Assembly: GCA_019828545.1 (NCBI GenBank)
Contig: JACVRA010000089.1
Span: forward strand, 167,053 to 231,052
Source of the DNA: Paracamarosporium sp. OC-R06-R3
Taxonomy: Eukaryota > Ascomycota > Dothideomycetes > Pleosporales > Didymosphaeriaceae
Length of the DNA stretch: 64,000 nucleotides
Direction: 5' to 3'
A program made the position numbers and the translations under genes. The notes under the pieces are model-generated. The model saw only the letters and a program-made list of their open reading frames with translations, made no database searches and was not told the origin of the DNA. Of this stretch, positions 44,021 through 63,468 are shown one piece after another. Every line of letters starts with the position of its first letter. The first letter of the stretch is position 1.

Positions 44021-45106
44021 TCATGGTGGAGATTCACGTTCTCGGGCCCCTGATTGTCTTTCGATCACGTACTCGTCCTTCGTGAAGACCTGATGCTCGT
44101 TGACCCAGTTCTTGACTGCCTCAAAGCTTCGGCACTTGTGTTGTCTAGATATTTTCATTAGCCGTGGTGTTATCGGAGACGGGATGGTTCTGGTAGCCCA
44201 GGTCCGCTTGGTAGGGCATTTCGGAATCACGTACACACTGAAGTCAGGGAATGGGGCTGGATGTCCTTTCACCCATACGTATGTCAGTACTCCCGTATCA
44301 GCTTCACACATAAGCTGCGCTTTGTTAGTTCATTCCATTTTTTCACCACCCAAGCAGTGACATTGGGTGTAGTACCTTCTGTCGAAGATTGTCGATGCAG
44401 TGATCTGCGCGCCGAATTAGTCTGGACATAGAAGCAAACTATCCATGGACACACAGGAGTGCACTTACCAATATGCCAGCGCAGTATCTGAGGTGTGTCC
44501 TTCCAAGCTGGCGCCCAGTCTTTGTAGTAGTTCTCGTACGAAACTTGTCGCAGCATATCCAGGCAATGTAGCTGGTGGATCACCTCTACGGACGCCATGT
44601 AGCCACCGCCGATCTCAGGGGCCAGTTTTACGGAGTATTCGTGAGACACGTTTATGGAAATCAAAGTGTCCTCATCTATACTGATGACACCTCCTACCTC
44701 TGTCAGAAACATTTCACTGCACTTAAAATGGAGGTTCCAGTGATGACTTACCGTCCGCATGAGTTATGCTATCCCATGATTTGTCGATCTCTGGGCTTGG
44801 TGTTCCCTTGTAGGCGTTGGGAGTTGCGAAACTTCCGTCGAAGCGTCAGGTGTACCCAGTATTCTTCACTGCCTCAAGCACAGGAGACCACTGAGGCGAG
44901 AAGTCGCTATCGACACATTTCGTTGATGGATCCTTTCGTGCAATAATACCAGAAAAAAACAGTAGGGAGGATACAAGGAAGAATACCGCCTGAGCGGCCC
45001 ATGAAGACCTGACGTGCTTCGACGTTGTTGAAGCTTTTGATCTAAAGAAACCGTCCTGGTACTCTTCGAGTATATATCCTTCAGAAAGGCGTTCGTGATT
45101 CTGCAT
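44021..45106 (-). pseudogene. UstYa/DUF3328-type oxidase with in-frame TGA
   Basis: Four exons on the minus strand (44752-45106, 44469-44699, 44376-44404, 44021-44314) would span 302 codons. Codons 1-33 are cytosolic and about 34-53 form a membrane helix. Family features are complete: SPVLEAV, the YKGTPSPEIDKSW block, and the two signature motifs HQLHC (codons 160-164) and HIDHC (194-198), then CEADTGVLTYVW. UstYa proteins make oxidative ring closures on ribosomal peptides such as ustiloxin and phomopsin. Codon 87 (bases 44846-44848) is TGA, between the SPVLEAV block and RFDGSFATPN. I found no intron of normal size that removes it. The gene is either recently inactivated or carries a sequencing error. 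It is divergent from the precursor gene. Confidence 0.8.
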
Positions 45107-46002: not shown

Positions 46003-46291
46003 ATGCAGTTCAGAGCTTTTCTCCTGGCCGCTTTCGTGGGTGTTAGCGTTGCGGCTCCTGTTGTCAAAACGCGTAAGTCCATTCATATGCGATCCTGCCG
46101 ACACATCTGTGAACATAGAAACTAATGAACTTGCGATATTAGTCAGCGCCGATAAGGCAATCATCAATACGCGTTTCGTCACCTACGGTGTCGAAAAGCG
46201 TGATGCGGAGGTCAACGCTACTACGAATACCGGAAATGCCGTTATCAACACCCGATTCGTTACCTACGGTGCCGAGAAACGTGACCACTAA
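46003..46291 (+). CDS. Candidate RiPP precursor, secreted, two KR-flanked repeats
   Basis: Exons 46003-46072 and 46143-46291 (70-bp intron with GTAAGT donor and ACTAAT branch) give 72 residues. Residues 1-18 form a signal peptide (MQFRAFLLAAFVGVSVAA). Two 15-residue repeats, pattern A-[IV]-INTRFVTYG-[VA]-EKR, lie at 29-43 and 56-70, each ending in a Lys-Arg kexin site. Between the repeats, 16 codon pairs including the following Asp differ at eight by synonymous changes and at only two by amino-acid changes, so the peptide itself appears conserved. A Asp-Ala dipeptide follows the first KR, as in dipeptidyl-peptidase-trimmed precursors. Signal peptide, repeated cores with aromatic residues, KR sites and a neighbouring UstYa gene are the known pattern of dikaritin precursors. 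Product unknown; a pheromone-like peptide is the alternative. Confidence 0.75.
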
Positions 46292-47303: not shown

Positions 47304-48130
47304 ATGGCTTCAAGGCGACCGTTCATTGTCATTATTCCTGGAGCGTCTCAAAATCCTACTCATTACGGCTACCTTGCCCATCTTCTTCAGCTCGGTGGCT
47401 ATCCAACTTTCTCTGCGCTCTTGCCTTCAACGGGGGCAGCTGAAGAGGTGACCGTCCAGGACGATACTCGTTACATTCGAGACAAAATGCTGATCCCCGT
47501 CCTGGATTATGAGGGACACGATGTGATAGTTCTCACCCACTCTTACAGTGATATACCTGGCAGTGCCGCTGTGCAAGGATTGTCTAAGCCGGAGCGTACG
47601 GCAGCTGGCAAGCAGACAGGAGTCCTTGGCCAGATTCATCTTGCGACACTCCTAACTAGGGGCGGCGATGGAACGGATATTGTAGGAGCGTTTGGAGGGC
47701 ACTACCCACCGCACATTCGACCGGACGTAAGTGCCACTCTCAACCTTGTACATTCTAAGCTGATGGTAACTCACAGCCCGATGCGAACCTTCTCCGCTGC
47801 GATGACCGTATTCCGCCGCTCTATGACGATGTACCAGCAGATCTGGCCAAGGTTGTCGCCGCGGCGGCGATGGCCCAAGGAATGACGTCTTTCAACTCGC
47901 CTGTTCCCCGAGCGAACTGGGATAGTGATGCCTACAAAGGAAGGATCGCATACATACGCACTACGAAGGATAAGACCTTTCCTCTGCATGTGCAGCAGAT
48001 GATGATTGATGGCACTGGTGTTCAATGGATAGTCAAGGACATTGACGCCGCACACTCGGCTCAGATCTCGCAGCCGGAGAAGTTAACGGCTATCTTGATT
48101 GAGGTTGCGCGGACCTGGGAGAGTCTTTGA
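47304..48130 (+). CDS. Alpha/beta hydrolase
   Basis: Exons 47304-47726 and 47777-48130 (50-bp intron) encode 258 residues. The start MASRRPFIVIIPGASQNPTH holds the oxyanion-hole PGA turn. The nucleophile is probably Ser80 in VLTHSYSDIPG, where most relatives have HSYGG, so the residue two after the serine is Ser instead of Gly. DIDAAHSAQISQPEKL supplies the catalytic His and the usual S-QP-ff ending. This is the AB_hydrolase-6 type often seen in secondary-metabolite clusters. The substrate is unknown. It lies 1 kb downstream of the precursor on the same strand. Confidence 0.85.
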
Positions 48131-48688
48131 GGGTGGGGGTGAGAGAGGCTTGAGGGTGAGAGAACCTCGAGGCTCTGCCACCCTCGAGGGTGACAGAGTA
48201 TTGCGTTGAGACAGACTGTGAACTTATGTAGTTCTTCTCGCCAGTAGTCCCTTGACAAACTACATAGATAATGTGTTCATCGAATCCTTCTTGGTCAAGT
48301 TGACGAAACAAGCCTTTTTTGACGTTGTTTATAGGCCATCGTTGTGGACAAGTGCTGAATTCGTATTCTGGGGCCACGGCGAGTGAAATCCGTATATTCA
48401 TTGCAGTTACGCGCCCTGATACTGCTGCCCGCTCGCACTCTTACTCGTCCAACGTGACCGAGTCTTGCTTTATTGACACTATCTGCTTAGACAAGCTTTG
48501 TGTGATTTCATGTCCGGACTATCCATATCTCAGCGAGACGTGAGTACGGTCACCGTAATAAGACCGAGACACCATCACTAAGCATCGCCCTGCAGCCAAT
48601 AGTGCCTTCGATGTTCTTGGCATCCGGTATATCAACTGCAGAGTAGCCTTTTGGAGCCAAAGGGCACTTGCAGGAGCTTCTTCGAGCA
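48131..48688. other. Intergenic with short G-rich repeats
   Basis: GAGGGTG words recur at 48129-48190, with palindromes CCTCGAGG (48165-48172) and CCCTCGAGGG (48181-48190). No gene seen. Confidence 0.4.
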
Positions 48689-49751
48689 ATGGCCTCCCAG
48701 GTATATTCACCCGCATATATCTTATCATACCGGAACGAAGAGCCCGAAGAGCACCAGCGCTTGGATTCACAACACGATGTCATTCAACACGCAATCCTTG
48801 GTGGCCGTCTCATTCATTCATCCATCACGTTTTCCCGTTCCTGCATCTTCATTGCTGATATTGCTTGTGGCACAGGCATCTGGCTAGAAGATGTTCGAAA
48901 GAGCCTGTTGGTAGAGCGGAGACACGAGGATCTGAACCTGATAGGATTCGACGTGAACGCCCACGGGTTCCGCACTAGCCTTATGCCCGCTATCAAGTTG
49001 ATACAGCATGACTGCGCTTCCGAGTTCCCCACCGAATACGTGGGGCGGTTCGACCTCGTCAATATGCGCGGTCTTGCGTTTGCAGTAACCCAAGAACAAT
49101 TTTCACGGGTTGTGGCGAATGCAGTCCACCTTTTGCGTAGGCTTCCTTTATCTCAAAATTCTGATCTTGACACTGACCCTTTGATAGGGCCTGGGGGCTA
49201 TCTACAGTGGCTTGAAACAGACACTAGGCTGTTCCAACAAGTGCCACCCACTTCTTACTTTTCCGAAGCAATTTCATTCATCAATCACGAGAGACAGCGT
49301 CGCAGTCTTGTGGAAAAGTACGTTAACTGCCTGCGGTGCCCGCTCACTAAGCTCATCTCCTGGCAGTCTTCCATGTTTCATGCTCCAAGAAATGCTCAAA
49401 TTCTCGAAAAATAAAACTATCGCTTCACAGAACGTTTCCTCGGTTAACATCCTGCATTTCAACCTCTTGCCCGGCGGCATCTACAGGAATCCAGCTCTCA
49501 CAGGTGATGAATTGAACAGGTCCTTTTCTGAGACGGTGCTCAACTCGATGAAGGTTGCTCTGATGAGTTTGTTGCGCCATAGCGATGGTGCAGGTGGAGA
49601 ACATCCAAATGGTGCCAGACCAGTTGATGCTACCACTGACCTCGCAAGGGTGTACCAGGTTGTGGACGCGATTGATGCTAGCAAGTATTCTACCGAGACT
49701 ATCGCTGGTGGAATGTTCCCCCATTTGGTGGCTCAGAAGTCGGAGGAGTAG
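48689..49751 (+). CDS. SAM-dependent methyltransferase
   Basis: Exons 48689-49317 and 49367-49751 (49-bp intron, GTACGT donor) encode 337 residues. Motif I is IADIACGTGIWLEDV with the DIACGTG core at 57-63. It is followed by NLIGFDVNA, FDLVNMRGLAFAV and GPGGYLQWLETD, the order seen in class I methyltransferases of fungal secondary metabolism (UMTA/LaeA-like group). The second exon continues in phase and ends at a stop at 49751. In RiPP clusters such as phomopsin and ustiloxin, methyltransferases N-methylate the peptide; that this one acts on the nearby precursor is only inferred from position. Confidence 0.85.
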
Positions 49752-49800: not shown

Positions 49801-50980
49801 CTAAGCCCACTCAGGCGGAATGCCGTAGTTCCTCGCAGTCTCCATTTGCCTTTGATCTTGTCGCTCTTGATTCTGATCTTGTTTGTCCTTTCGCCTACTC
49901 AAGAGTATTCCAATCGAGGGCATACAGCCAGCGACAATGACAGCCGTGTATTCTACCAAACTCCATAGCTGAAGCTTGCCAATATGGTATGGAAGGTCCG
50001 TTTCATGGTCAAGAAAAAGATTGCGGTAGTATAAAGAAGCCGCTGCGCACGCAACAGCACTGTTCATCAAGTCGAGTCAGTCTATGAACACTCAGGAATG
50101 TAATTATACCAGGGGAGACTTACAGCAATGCAGCAACTGTGATAGACCCAATCAACATTTTGCCACCAAGCTGCCGCGCCCCGGCAGCCACGATCAACCA
50201 GCCAAATATCGCGACCATCATCAGATCTGTAAGTAACGCAAATCCCCCTTCTACATATATCGCTCCCGGGACATTTATACAATGTGCGTTGGTCGTGGAA
50301 TCCCAGACTCCCCTCCTTGGTGTACACTGGAACGCAGCTACGAAAATGACCGCGAGATAGTATCCAACTATCATAACTGTGATAGGGTAGACACACCACT
50401 TGAAGGCCCGATGCGACTGGGTTTTGGTATTGAAATACCGTGTGATCTGTATTGTAAGCGAGAGTTTGGCGGTTCCAAGCATCGGCCCAAGTAGTAAGTC
50501 CGCGATATTCAAATTCTGTTGTAGGCTCAGCTCGCAATAGAAAGAACAAAAGGACAGGGGTACTCACATTCATGATCTGTGGCATTCGAGATGCTCGCAC
50601 ATTCCACTGGTGTTTTGAGATGCCTAGGTAACAGCTGATGTCAAAAAGCACCGTCCACGCGACTAAATTTGCCTGTGGGCCGTGTCAAAAGTGACCTATT
50701 GTTTCTGGAACAATGCGTACCGCAGCGAAAATCGAAAGATCTGTACAAAGTTAGGACAGTGCGAATTAGGGGAGTAAGGACATTGCGCACAGTCTTCCCA
50801 GTCAGGGTTCTTGGTTACCCATACCGTGGTATAAACGCGGACGGACATGGAGAGTAATAACATGATCAGAGTAATTATTGATATAGCCAGAACGCTAGGC
50901 CAGATATCTGAGTTCAGGTCCAAGATGGGGATTGTGCCTGGAGGTGGTATACCAGCAGGTACATTCTCCAAGGTGGACAT
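49801..50980 (-). CDS. Fungal rhodopsin-like seven-helix membrane protein
   Basis: Five exons on the minus strand (50791-50980, 50721-50740, 50568-50672, 50124-50515, 49801-50059) give 321 residues. Exon 2 is only 20 nt; with it the family motif DWEDYLSIFAA is restored. Helices include LAISIITLIMLLLSMSVRVY, WCVYPITVMIVGYYLAVIFV and LWSLVEYTAVIVAGCMPSIG. The W-x-x-V-E and C-x-P ending is typical of the fungal rhodopsin-like/PTH11-related family (PF20684), membrane proteins common in secondary-metabolite loci, mostly without known ligand. It converges with the methyltransferase gene, with 49 bp between stop codons. Confidence 0.85.
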
Positions 50981-52248
50981 CGTGTATGTTGGTGCTGAGA
51001 GGAGGAACCGGGGGACAAAGACCTCAAGACAATTTTGAGAGCAACAGAGTATACGAGACTTCTTTGAGGAGAGTTATCGACAACAGCTAGTTTTTTGATG
51101 TCAACCCGCGATGCATGAGCTGCAGCGCAAAGGCGGCGGGCACACAGACTTCGACTAGAGTGCTGCTACACAAGAACCTTCGGGTAATAATTTAGGATGC
51201 CTTGTTTTTGGGTACTTCAGGAGCCCACATGCACTCCTCCACGAGGTGCTGTTTGAAACCGAACACTCCCGAAAGCTTGTCTGGAACAGCCCGATAGACT
51301 GGATGAAATTGAACGTCCGTCATCTTGCACAGTGTGAGTTGCACGCTTCTATGTTTGCATTTCTAATACAAGAACGGAGGCTTATCTGTGTTGACGAATG
51401 GAGCTCTTGCAATTCGGCCAAGTGTTGCAGTATCCCGTAGACTTGCATATAGTTTAGTCTAACGCTGACGCCCAACAGCCAAGTGCATTAGGTAACGATG
51501 CTCAAGGAATATTGCAGTAACGAGGTGCAAATGGCAAGGCAAACGGAAGGTGGGGTTTTGTGGGATGCGCAGCAGATGCGTTATACTAGCACCATTTAAT
51601 TTATCAGTTTCTCCCCAATCGGATAGTATTGTAACGCCTTAGATAGCCTACCACCCCAGCGCGCACAACATTTAGTCATACAATTCTTGTTAGCCAGGTA
51701 GCCTAAAACTCTCTCAGCGACGGAGACCAGCGCGTTTACGATGTAAGCTTGGGAGAGATGATGTACAATTGCTACATCTAGAACGTTGTCTTTCGATCGA
51801 GATGTCGCTAGCGTTGATTTGGTCCCTTTCTCAGGCGAAACGCCACATGTGCGCATGCTCATGTTGCGTATGCATAACGCAGCTTTCCCGTACAGGACTG
51901 GTACTATGAGGGCGATGATCTCATTGGTTGAGAGGGACGAACAGTCGGTATGTACGATAATATATCGGCGTAGCTTAGCTTGCAGTTCTAATTACCTGAT
52001 TCGCAGCTATGGGTGGACGTACATCTTGCCTGACACCTACGCCCATCGACTGCAGGATGCATTGCTGTATTATCATAAGCATTCGGACTCCGTTCGCAGG
52101 ACGAAGTGATGGTCAAAGCAGAGAGGCCACGCAAAGCCCCAGGGTACCGAATGGCGTTTGAAGCATAAATTCAAATGGTGAAGCCATCGAATTGCAGAGT
52201 ATCAAACTACAGGCGTTTTGTCTATAATATTTTTATCATAACTGGACA
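50981..52248. other. Intergenic, possible gene debris
   Basis: Short frames at 51246-51440 and 51786-52109 have no recognised motif. In the second, a GTATGT..CGCAG intron at 51949-52009 would link MISLVERDEQS to a short ending LWVDVHLA, so this could be the 3' end of a lost gene. No ATG-led gene was found. Confidence 0.3.
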
Positions 52249-53550
52249 ATGTTGCAACCTCTCACGCAAGCCGCAAAGGTTTGCATCACAGTCACGACGA
52301 TCTTGGGCGTAATCGCAATCGTTGTCGTAGCATTGCGATTCTATTGTCGGCTTAAGGTTCAGAAAATAGGAATCGGGCCTGATGACTGGTGTGTCTTGGC
52401 CGCGGTGGTAAGCTTGCCCAGGTACTGCCGATATTCAATTCCAGCTAACACAGAAGAGGCTATTTCAACCGGCATCGCTGCAGGAACAAACTATGCAGCC
52501 GCAGTTACCGGGGTGGGTGACAACTCCTTTCATCCTTCCATGAACCAAGTCCTCTTCGCTCTCAAAGTAAGTGTTAGTGTCTGATATATGCGATCGAGTT
52601 CTTCTGACTATCTTTAGATGAACGTTGGATTAGAAATATCTCAAGTGGCTTGCATGGGTGTCATCAAGGTCTCAATTCTTCTCTACTACAAACGCATCCT
52701 AGTCCTAGAGATGTACCAGAGAATCACAAATGTTCTCATCGGCATCGTTGTTGCATTTGAACTCTCTATCTTCATGGTATGTCGGCCCCGTGGGGACCTT
52801 GTGAAATCAGACTTACTCAAACAAATACCATAGGCCACCCTGTTCTCCAAAGGGGTTACCATCTCCAAACAATGGGATCTTTTTGCGCCCTTCCGCATCA
52901 ATGTTTCTGCAATACTACTTACATTTTGTGCGGCAAACGCTTTTCTCGACCTGATCACGCTTGCACTGCCAATCGTAGCAGTACACAGCCTACAGATGAG
53001 CACGAACAAAAAGCTGCTACTATCAGTCATTTTCAGTTTGGGAAGCTTGTACGTATTGGTTTCGCGTATGTGTCGCGAACAAGTTTATCGTTAACGTTGA
53101 GATTTCAGCTGCATTATTGCATCTATTGTCCGTCTCTACTACGCTGTACAGTTCACCAAGGTGGTGCCAACTCCAGATTCTTTCTTCCAGGCGCCCTTCA
53201 TTAACCAGATCTTATGGGCGCTAATTGAACCCCCGGTATTTATATTGGCTGGTTGTCTGCTCACACTCGCACCTCTTTTCCGGATTAGAATCAAACCTAG
53301 AGTATCCAGCTGGTTTCATGCGCTGCGTTCTATGTTACTGTCGGTTTGCAAATCGTCTCCAAACACGAGATCTTCTACGACGGGGAAAGCAGATGGCACG
53401 GCACCATACGGTATGCCTGGCGGTGAACACGAGCAGCAGCTCTGGAATTCATCCGCACCGGTCCGGCCTCTCAGGGGACAACGCGTGGAGGAATTGGAGA
53501 TGCGGAACGTCGAACGACCACGCGTACTTGAAGATGAGACTCAAGTGTAG
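52249..53550 (+). CDS. Fungal rhodopsin-like membrane protein, second copy
   Basis: Five exons (52249-52407, 52459-52566, 52618-52776, 52834-53048, 53109-53550) encode 360 residues. The first helix is followed by RFYCRLKVQKIGIGPDDWC, the DDW motif of this family. Then come GVGDNSFHPSM, QVACMGVIKVSILLYYKRI, a segment ending FLDLITLALPIVAVHSLQ, and WALIEPPVFILAGCLLTLAP, where relatives have W..vE....C.P. The acceptor of intron 1 was chosen 9 nt after a CTAAC branch site; the intron is a multiple of three, so a retained form would also stay open. It belongs to the same broad family as the gene at 49.8 kb but is clearly diverged from it. Confidence 0.8.
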
Positions 53551-62420: not shown

Positions 62421-63468
62421 CTACTGTCGGTACAGCTGCCCGCTCAGACCAGCCTTGATAGACTCCTCGAAGTCTTCCTTTTGCAACCCTAACTTCTCGT
62501 TCCACAAGCCGAAAGGCCTGTGGTCGCCCAATCCTGCTTTACCAGAGACAACTGCTTGAATTAGAGGGAAAAATCCAGAGAAATCACCTGCCTGGATCTT
62601 TTTAAGACCGTCTTCTTGCAGAGCCTTTGAGTCTAAATGCTCAACCTTGTACTTCTCTCCTGTGATCTTTTCAGCCTTCTCTAGAAGCTCTTTCTGCGAT
62701 GTCTCAAAGGACGAGACGTAGACAGCCTGGTTCTTTGTCTCCTCAGCGTACTCGAGAATCCTGACTGTAGCAAGGCCAATTTGGCGGAGATTGGTAGTTG
62801 AAAATAGAGCCATGCCTTGGTCAATGAGTGCAGCGGTTTTGGTATGAGGGTTGATGCCGAGGAATCCGACGTTGAGTCCCCAGTCTAGAAAGATATTAGA
62901 AAACCACAGCTATCTTTGGCACTTTGTAGCTTACCAAAGAAAGGACCTGTGATGATGGTGGTTTGGCTAATCTCACTCTCCTTACTCTTGAGATAGTCTT
63001 GGACATCCACCTTGGTTTTGAAAAGAGGGTTCACTTCCAGCGCACGTGGATCAGTAGTGTTGGAGCCAAACTCAGAAGGGATAAAGCGCTTGACACCTGC
63101 AGCAATAGCTGCGTCAATAACCTTAATCTGTACATCTAACACCTCAGACGCGATAAGAGAGACCACGGCGTCTTGAGCTTGAAATGCAGATCGAAGAGAG
63201 TCAAAGGAGTCGAAGTTCGCGCGCACGACTTTAACATTGTCGGAGAAGGTCTGAGTAGAGGATTCGCCTATAAGATGTTAAAATCAAGCTTCATTGTTGA
63301 GGGAATACTAACGGCTGAGGACTGTCACATTGAAAGATGAGTTTTTCAGAAAGGCATCCAGGACTGAAGGCCCGAGTCTTCCACCTGCCTACTAACATTA
63401 TAGAGGATATCAAAATGTGGGGTACTCAAGGTACTCACCCCGATGATGACAACGTTCTTAATTAACAT
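62421..63468 (-). CDS. NmrA-like/isoflavone-reductase-like NAD(P)-binding protein
   Basis: Four exons on the minus strand (63439-63468, 63313-63388, 62935-63267, 62421-62884) give 300 residues. The first, 30-nt exon supplies MLIKNVVIIG, and the splice completes the Rossmann motif G-A-G-G-R-L-G. Further landmarks are VSLIASEVLDVQIKVIDAAI, GVKRFIPSEFG and TTIITGPFFGDWGL. This is the NmrA-like/aromatic-alcohol-reductase group of atypical SDRs; many reduce small aromatic or isoflavone-like compounds, while NmrA itself is a redox-sensing regulator of AreA. The enzyme type is more likely given SEFG and the C-terminal region. Donors are GTGAGT, GTTAGT and GTAAGC. Confidence 0.88.

What the first reader, a model, noticed from the sequence alone, without database searches (positions are those of the whole stretch)
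46003..46291. New small RiPP precursor with two conserved KR-terminated repeats
Seen: a spliced 72-residue secreted protein with two 15-residue repeats of pattern A-[IV]-INTRFVTYG-[VA]-EKR. The two DNA copies differ at eight synonymous positions and only two that change an amino acid, so selection has kept the peptide. Known: dikaritin precursors (ustiloxin, phomopsin, asperipin types) have a signal peptide, repeated cores with Tyr/Phe and kexin sites next to UstYa genes. Inference: a core around RFVTYG, with Phe and Tyr as possible crosslinking residues. This core does not match the dikaritin cores I know.
Basis: partly seen in the sequence, partly recalled or inferred. Interest (0 to 1): 0.9.

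Follow-up and report, generated by a model that had tools for sequence, protein, structure and literature searches.

The report
Conserved fungal repeat-peptide precursor gene
A small fungal gene encodes a secreted protein carrying two copies of a short peptide whose sequence is almost unchanged in a lichen fungus and other relatives, and it sits beside a peptide-crosslinking enzyme gene that is interrupted by a stop codon in this genome.

Summary
Window 46003-46291 (+) encodes, across a 70-nt intron, a 72-aa protein with a secretion-signal-like N-terminus and two repeats, AIINTRFVTYGVEKR and AVINTRFVTYGAEKR, differing mostly at silent sites. Three other proteins share the repeat: one of the lichen fungus Gyalolechia fulgens and two unnamed ENA ones. 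A UstYa (DUF3328) gene lies next door (44021-45106, -), and in Gyalolechia UstYa and precursor bear consecutive locus tags. I read it as the precursor of a Kex2-processed, UstYa-modified peptide, dikaritin/epichloecyclin-like, with a core not found in the texts searched. Caution: the window's UstYa gene has an in-frame stop, so this genome may no longer make a crosslinked product. Precursors beside UstYa genes are common in this genome; unusual is a core kept across species, beside a UstYa group found in five fungal classes. New member of a known kind.

The parts
46003..46072 (+). precursor exon 1: start codon and signal-peptide-like N-terminus (MQFRAFLLAAFVGVSVAAP..)
   Evidence: translation; signal peptide judged by eye, no predictor used
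46073..46142 (+). 70-nt intron, GTAAGT..CTAAT..TAG
   Evidence: no RNA evidence
46143..46291 (+). precursor exon 2 with both repeats and stop
46157..46204 (+). repeat 1, AIINTRFVTYGVEKRD
46238..46285 (+). repeat 2, AVINTRFVTYGAEKRD
46196..46201 (+). Lys-Arg (candidate Kex2 site) after repeat 1
46277..46282 (+). Lys-Arg (candidate Kex2 site) after repeat 2
44021..45106 (-). UstYa (PF11807) gene, divergent from the precursor, five exons in my model: 45106-44752, 44693-44469, 44404-44376, 44314-44235, 44144-44021
   Evidence: Pfam (4.5e-53 for the piece after the stop), exon model, ortholog alignment
44846..44848 (-). in-frame TGA that interrupts the UstYa gene one residue before its invariant FDGSF motif
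47304..48130 (+). alpha/beta hydrolase gene, two exons read by eye; role in the pathway unknown
   Evidence: PF12697 8.1e-12
48647..49751 (+). putative SAM methyltransferase (two overlapping open frames); role in the pathway unknown
   Evidence: PF13649 22.2 bits, below its curated cut-off of 27; second frame no match

Best explanation
The gene encodes a Kex2-processed repeat precursor of a UstYa-modified peptide. SHOWN by sequence: a signal-like N-terminus, two near-identical cores, KR after each, an adjacent divergent UstYa gene, and the same core in three other proteins with constant core and variable spacers. INFERRED: the protein enters the secretory pathway, Kex2 (one P_proprotein match in this genome) cuts after KR, exopeptidases trim the spacer, and UstYa oxidatively closes a ring through the invariant Tyr, probably to the invariant Ile seven residues before it, as described for epichloecyclins (Ile N-terminal, Tyr internal). 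The mature core would be INTRFVTY(G) or AVINTRFVTY(G). In the genome as assembled the cyclase gene is interrupted, so here the product may be linear, made with another UstYa, or no longer made.
For: Repeat anatomy and silent-site excess. Relatives: P0001 8.8e-11, P0002 7.2e-6, P0103 9.6e-29 with five repeats. Six of the ten core columns are invariant in 11 of 11 copies: A1, I3, N4, R6, F7, Y10. UstYa next door. Umemura 2020 reports DUF3328 gene counts highest at the position next to such precursors, and Tyr in 65.6% of repeats with against 38.2% without a DUF3328 neighbour (PMC7329392, passages). Five other repeat/KR precursors lie beside UstYa genes in this genome.
Against: The UstYa gene has an in-frame TGA, and an intron that removed it would also remove invariant residues. 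No tyrosinase and no S41 peptidase match lies on the window's contig; the four-gene asperipin-2a cluster as described has neither. No dibasic site precedes the first core. No annotated precursor was returned for the other named fungi with a close UstYa; short spliced genes may simply be unannotated. The relatives of the precursor are only three, one of them named. No crosslink, transcript or mass evidence.
Confidence: 0.7

Rival explanations
1. A decaying pathway: in this species the UstYa gene is dead, and the precursor is a leftover whose constraint reflects its past. (Compatible with the best explanation as to what the family is; it differs on whether the pathway still works here.)
For: In-frame TGA in the only UstYa gene beside it; no second copy of the locus and no close UstYa paralog: the 29 other matches at E up to 1e-5 are 28-52% identical.
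Against: The precursor frame, splice signals and both repeats are intact, and the rest of the modelled UstYa frame with its HQLHC motif is open; a single stop could be an assembly error.
Confidence: 0.35
2. A linear secreted signal peptide, like an alpha-pheromone, not modified by UstYa; the neighbour is coincidental.
For: Kex2-repeat precursors without DUF3328 neighbours are the majority (6120 of 7878 in PMC7329392); the core is conserved as signals are; the UstYa gene here is interrupted.
Against: UstYa linkage is also indicated in Gyalolechia; invariant Tyr and Ile; in the same paper only 3 of 443 pheromone-type precursors have a DUF3328 gene within 15 genes.
Confidence: 0.2
3. Chance open frame with a local DNA duplication, not a gene.
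For: No transcript evidence; two copies only.
Against: Same architecture in three other proteins; silent-site bias.
Confidence: 0.02

Closest known systems
Epichloecyclins (GigA, Epichloe)
   Same: Secreted repeat precursor with KR sites, DUF3328 gene in the cluster, ring closed on Tyr with an N-terminal Ile (PMC9233826, PMC6514808, PMC7317419, passages). From memory, no call: the core INFKIPYTG also starts Ile-Asn, has a basic fourth residue and ends in Gly.
   Different: Core sequence differs (INTRFVTYG); Ile-to-Tyr span is eight residues here against a reported hepta-peptidic ring; the genome's one P_proprotein match is on another contig; UstYa interrupted.
Asperipin-2a (AprA/AprY)
   Same: One UstYa-type gene, no tyrosinase named in the cluster, Tyr-bearing core (passages).
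   Different: Core FYYTGY; its cluster has a transporter and an isoflavone reductase, while none was recognised directly beside this gene among the 20 window proteins given to Pfam.
Ustiloxin/phomopsin (UstA, PhomA)
   Same: Signal peptide, repeats, Kex2 sites, UstYa, Tyr and Ile in the core (passages).
   Different: Tyr precedes Ile (YAIG, YVIP) there, follows it here; no tyrosinase or S41 peptidase match on this contig.
[quoted passage not shown]
   Same: Fits the anatomy.
   Different: None of the conserved motifs printed in section 10 of PMC6339444 (EDYXI, DADAATXYV[A/V]D, YVW[G/A][G/S], SPPHKT, QKLKVD, XSDW) matches; the type profiles of PMC7329392 are in a figure that I could not see.

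Membership tests
UstYa-associated RiPP precursors (dikaritin sense, DUF3328 as marker) | N-terminal signal peptide | tested here: inconclusive
   Hydrophobic N-terminus ending ..SVAAP seen by eye; no predictor used
UstYa-associated RiPP precursors (dikaritin sense, DUF3328 as marker) | Repeated core peptides | tested here: met
   Two copies here, 2, 2 and 5 in relatives
UstYa-associated RiPP precursors (dikaritin sense, DUF3328 as marker) | Kex2 dibasic sites between repeats | tested here: met
   KR after both copies here; over the four proteins KR after 6 of 11, AR 2 of 11, neither 3 of 11 (counted); P0001 has no KR
UstYa-associated RiPP precursors (dikaritin sense, DUF3328 as marker) | UstYa/DUF3328 gene close by | tested here: met
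   Adjacent and recognisable; linkage indicated by tags in Gyalolechia
UstYa-associated RiPP precursors (dikaritin sense, DUF3328 as marker) | That UstYa gene intact | tested here: not met
   In-frame TGA at 44846-44848 in this assembly; all 17 other rows of the alignment carry a residue there
UstYa-associated RiPP precursors (dikaritin sense, DUF3328 as marker) | Tyr (or other aromatic) in the core | tested here: met
   Phe7 and Tyr10 in 11 of 11 copies
UstYa-associated RiPP precursors (dikaritin sense, DUF3328 as marker) | Side-chain crosslinked product | not testable with these tools
   Needs mass spectrometry
Ustiloxin/phomopsin subgroup | YxI core order with tyrosinase and S41 peptidase in the cluster | tested here: not met
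   Core order is I..Y; 39 tyrosinase and 6 S41 matches in the genome, none on C330
Epichloecyclin | GigA-type core and kexin gene in the cluster | tested here: inconclusive
   The only P_proprotein match is on another contig, C306; the GigA sequence is recalled, not fetched

The most novel reading that the evidence does not exclude
INxRFxTY is a vertically inherited, deeply conserved cyclic peptide of Pezizomycotina, kept as a developmental or symbiotic signal rather than a fast-changing toxin: its UstYa belongs to a group whose branches roughly follow Lecanoromycetes, Xylariales, Eurotiales and Dothideomycetes, and precursors remain to be found beside the other orthologs.
Probability: 0.22. 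Interest if true: 0.75.

Novelty: new member of a known kind. Interest (0 to 1): 0.5.

Why it matters
[quoted passage not shown] This family gives a concrete precursor, core and UstYa group to look for in lichen and other fungi, with predicted masses. A core kept across species argues for a function under selection and makes the toxin-or-signal question testable.

Tried and rejected
DNA loci of relatives: genome contigs and viral-contig scans with the three-precursor alignment gave 48 and 15 pattern matches, none confirmed (these collections are prokaryotic and viral). A second precursor in the own genome: only this locus. A second copy or near paralog of the UstYa gene: none found. Solved structures for UstYa: best E 0.13 and none. 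Bacterial promoter scan: not meaningful for a fungus. Splicing out the TGA: rejected, because the first AG after it lies inside the codons of the invariant FDGSF motif (sequence, alignment). A check of the hydrolase splice used a wrong exon end, so its printed variants are disregarded; the model given to one search was read. Identity with the abundant KEP type G-6 of PMC7329392, whose listed genera include Hypoxylon, Penicillium, Aspergillus and Rutstroemia, is not excluded: its profile is only in a figure; its described multiple Asp residues speak against it. Literature: core strings gave no paper (the one paper listed held only the word epichloecyclin), and the fragments NSRF and NTRF are absent from the main texts of PMC7329392, PMC6339444 and PMC7099791 and, as word starts, of PMC9632046. 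The library is open-licence PMC only, and figures and supplements were not searched, so this does not show that the core is unpublished.

Full report
What is there. The + strand from 46003 to 46291 encodes MQFRAFLLAAFVGVSVAAPVVKTLSADKAIINTRFVTYGVEKRDAEVNATTNTGNAVINTRFVTYGAEKRDH once a 70-nt intron (46073-46142, GTAAGT, a CTAAT branch-like site 21 nt from the end, TAG) is removed. An acceptor at 46118 would also keep the frame and the repeats. The two 16-codon repeats lie at 46157-46204 and 46238-46285 and differ by 9 silent and 2 replacement changes; random placement of the same number of changes gave as few amino-acid changes in 9 of 50,000 trials. Under the criteria no other open frame of the window repeats as well, and in the 43.1 Mb genome the DNA-coded core pattern occurs only at these two places.

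Relatives. A search of 5.8 billion proteins gave two relatives at E up to 1 among 4 candidates: P0001 (70 aa, ENA, no name) and P0002 (91 aa, Gyalolechia fulgens MAG, Q9196_005253). Because that search admits only 0.55-1.75 times the query length, I ran another with a longer query made of the three precursors; it gave one protein at E up to 10 among 2291 candidates, P0103 (226 aa as predicted, ENA, no name), with a similar signal-like stretch in mid-protein and five repeats after it. Over the 11 repeats of the four proteins, A1, I3, N4, R6, F7 and Y10 never vary; position 5 is Thr or Ser, 8 is Val, Ala or Leu, 9 is Thr in 10 and Asn in 1; position 13 is Glu in 9 of 11. The Gly after Tyr is present in 3 of 11. 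KR follows 6 of 11, AR 2 of 11, and the 3 without either are the last copies of P0001, P0002 and P0103. So the conserved unit is the ten-residue core, with variable spacers between: the pattern expected if the core is the product. Only one relative has an organism name, so how far the core itself reaches is known poorly.

The neighbour. A UstYa (PF11807) gene lies next door on the - strand: the exon model spans 44021-45106, and the part after its stop scores 180.8 bits. Of the 100 proteins returned for that part, the first eleven cover all of it at 58-76% identity: among them Hypoxylon 74, Nemania 73, Pyrenochaeta 76, Cudoniella 71, the lichens Icmadophila 71 and Calogaya 65, Penicillium 63 and Aspergillus niger 58. 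In G. fulgens the UstYa relative P0039 is Q9196_005252, one tag below the precursor P0002, both on one contig of 10,130 bases by the listing. I could not read that contig; adjacency is inferred from tags and contig length. A quick tree of 40 rows (39 hits that I picked of the 100, plus the window; midpoint root, for drawing only) has a set of 25 rows at SH-aLRT 96. Inside it are Penicillium with A. niger (100), Nemania with Hypoxylon (100), these joined by Cudoniella and two metagenome proteins (86), ten rows that hold the five named lichens Icmadophila, Calogaya, Gyalolechia, Heterodermia and Flavoplaca with five ENA proteins (88), two Pyrenula proteins (95), and the window with the Dothideomycetes Pyrenochaeta and Polyplosphaeria (80) (the class of Penicillium and Aspergillus, Eurotiomycetes, is from memory). 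Another lichen protein, of Letharia, and a second Polyplosphaeria one fall outside. No strongly supported (starred) set of up to half the rows holds the window. This suggests, weakly, vertical descent and a dothideomycete host; no call names the organism.

The break. The UstYa reading frame has an in-frame TGA at 44846-44848. It falls at a position that varies among the aligned relatives, one residue before FDGSF, which is invariant in the 18 aligned rows. The next AG lies inside the codons of that motif, so an intron that removed the stop would also remove part of it. The four introns of the model have GT..AG ends, and the rest of the joined frame is open, HQLHC included. There is no second copy of the locus in the genome, and the 29 other UstYa matches at E up to 1e-5 are 28-52% identical by exon. 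Assembly error, recent loss in this strain, or another UstYa acting in trans all remain possible.

Context. The genome gives 75 matching stretches of UstYa. Of the 30 best of these, taken as loci with about 1.5 kb on each side and scanned for repeats with KR or RR, 6 loci (two of them the same place) show five other repeat precursors, such as QWYDLTYIDKR and QYHGKNVVK. So a precursor beside a UstYa gene is ordinary here. The genome has one P_proprotein (Kex2-type) match, on another contig; of 39 tyrosinase and 6 S41 matches none falls on the window's contig C330. An alpha/beta hydrolase (47304-48130) and a weak methyltransferase match (48647-49751) follow the precursor; whether they belong to the pathway is unknown.

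How it probably works. By analogy with ustiloxin, asperipin-2a and epichloecyclin (PMC6514808, PMC9233826, passages), the secreted precursor is cut by Kex2, trimmed, and oxidised by UstYa at the Tyr. Epichloecyclins are described with an N-terminal Ile joined to an internal Tyr; this core has an invariant Ile and, seven residues on, an invariant Tyr, the same polarity and the reverse of ustiloxin. I therefore favour an Ile-Tyr ring; Phe is the alternative partner. All of this paragraph is inference.

Novelty. The texts searched do not contain the core strings, and the conserved motifs printed in PMC6339444 differ (section 10). A lichen survey found no conserved repeats in its two clans (PMC12048977, section 22). 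The library is open-licence PMC only and I read no supplements or figures, so prior listing of such a precursor in a table cannot be excluded. I file it as a new member of a known kind.

Noticed in passing
L001/L020 (G000 C200), L003 (C260), L004 (C302), L010 (C42), L025 (C142): Five other repeat precursors with KR sites beside UstYa matches in this genome, with cores such as DPQWYDLTYID, TNFEIDTILDVN, QYHGKNVVK, KDSDDIWLW and VDEGFSKIIY.
   Followed up: partly
window 62421-63277 (-): NmrA/isoflavone-reductase-like open frames, recognised by eye and not scanned; the asperipin-2a cluster contains an isoflavone reductase, but this lies 16 kb away.
   Followed up: no
window 50082-51165 (-) and 52228-53550 (+): Two fungal rhodopsin-domain (PF20684) membrane protein genes near the precursor; one frame of the first scores 65.4 bits, one frame of the second 20 bits, below its cut-off of 27.
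   Followed up: no
P0010, P0039, P0048, P0059, P0031, P0020 (alignment A2): P0010, P0039, P0048 and P0059 carry extra residues where the window UstYa gene has intron 1, and P0039, P0048, P0059, P0031 and P0020 diverge where it has intron 2, which looks like introns read as coding in those protein predictions.
   Followed up: partly
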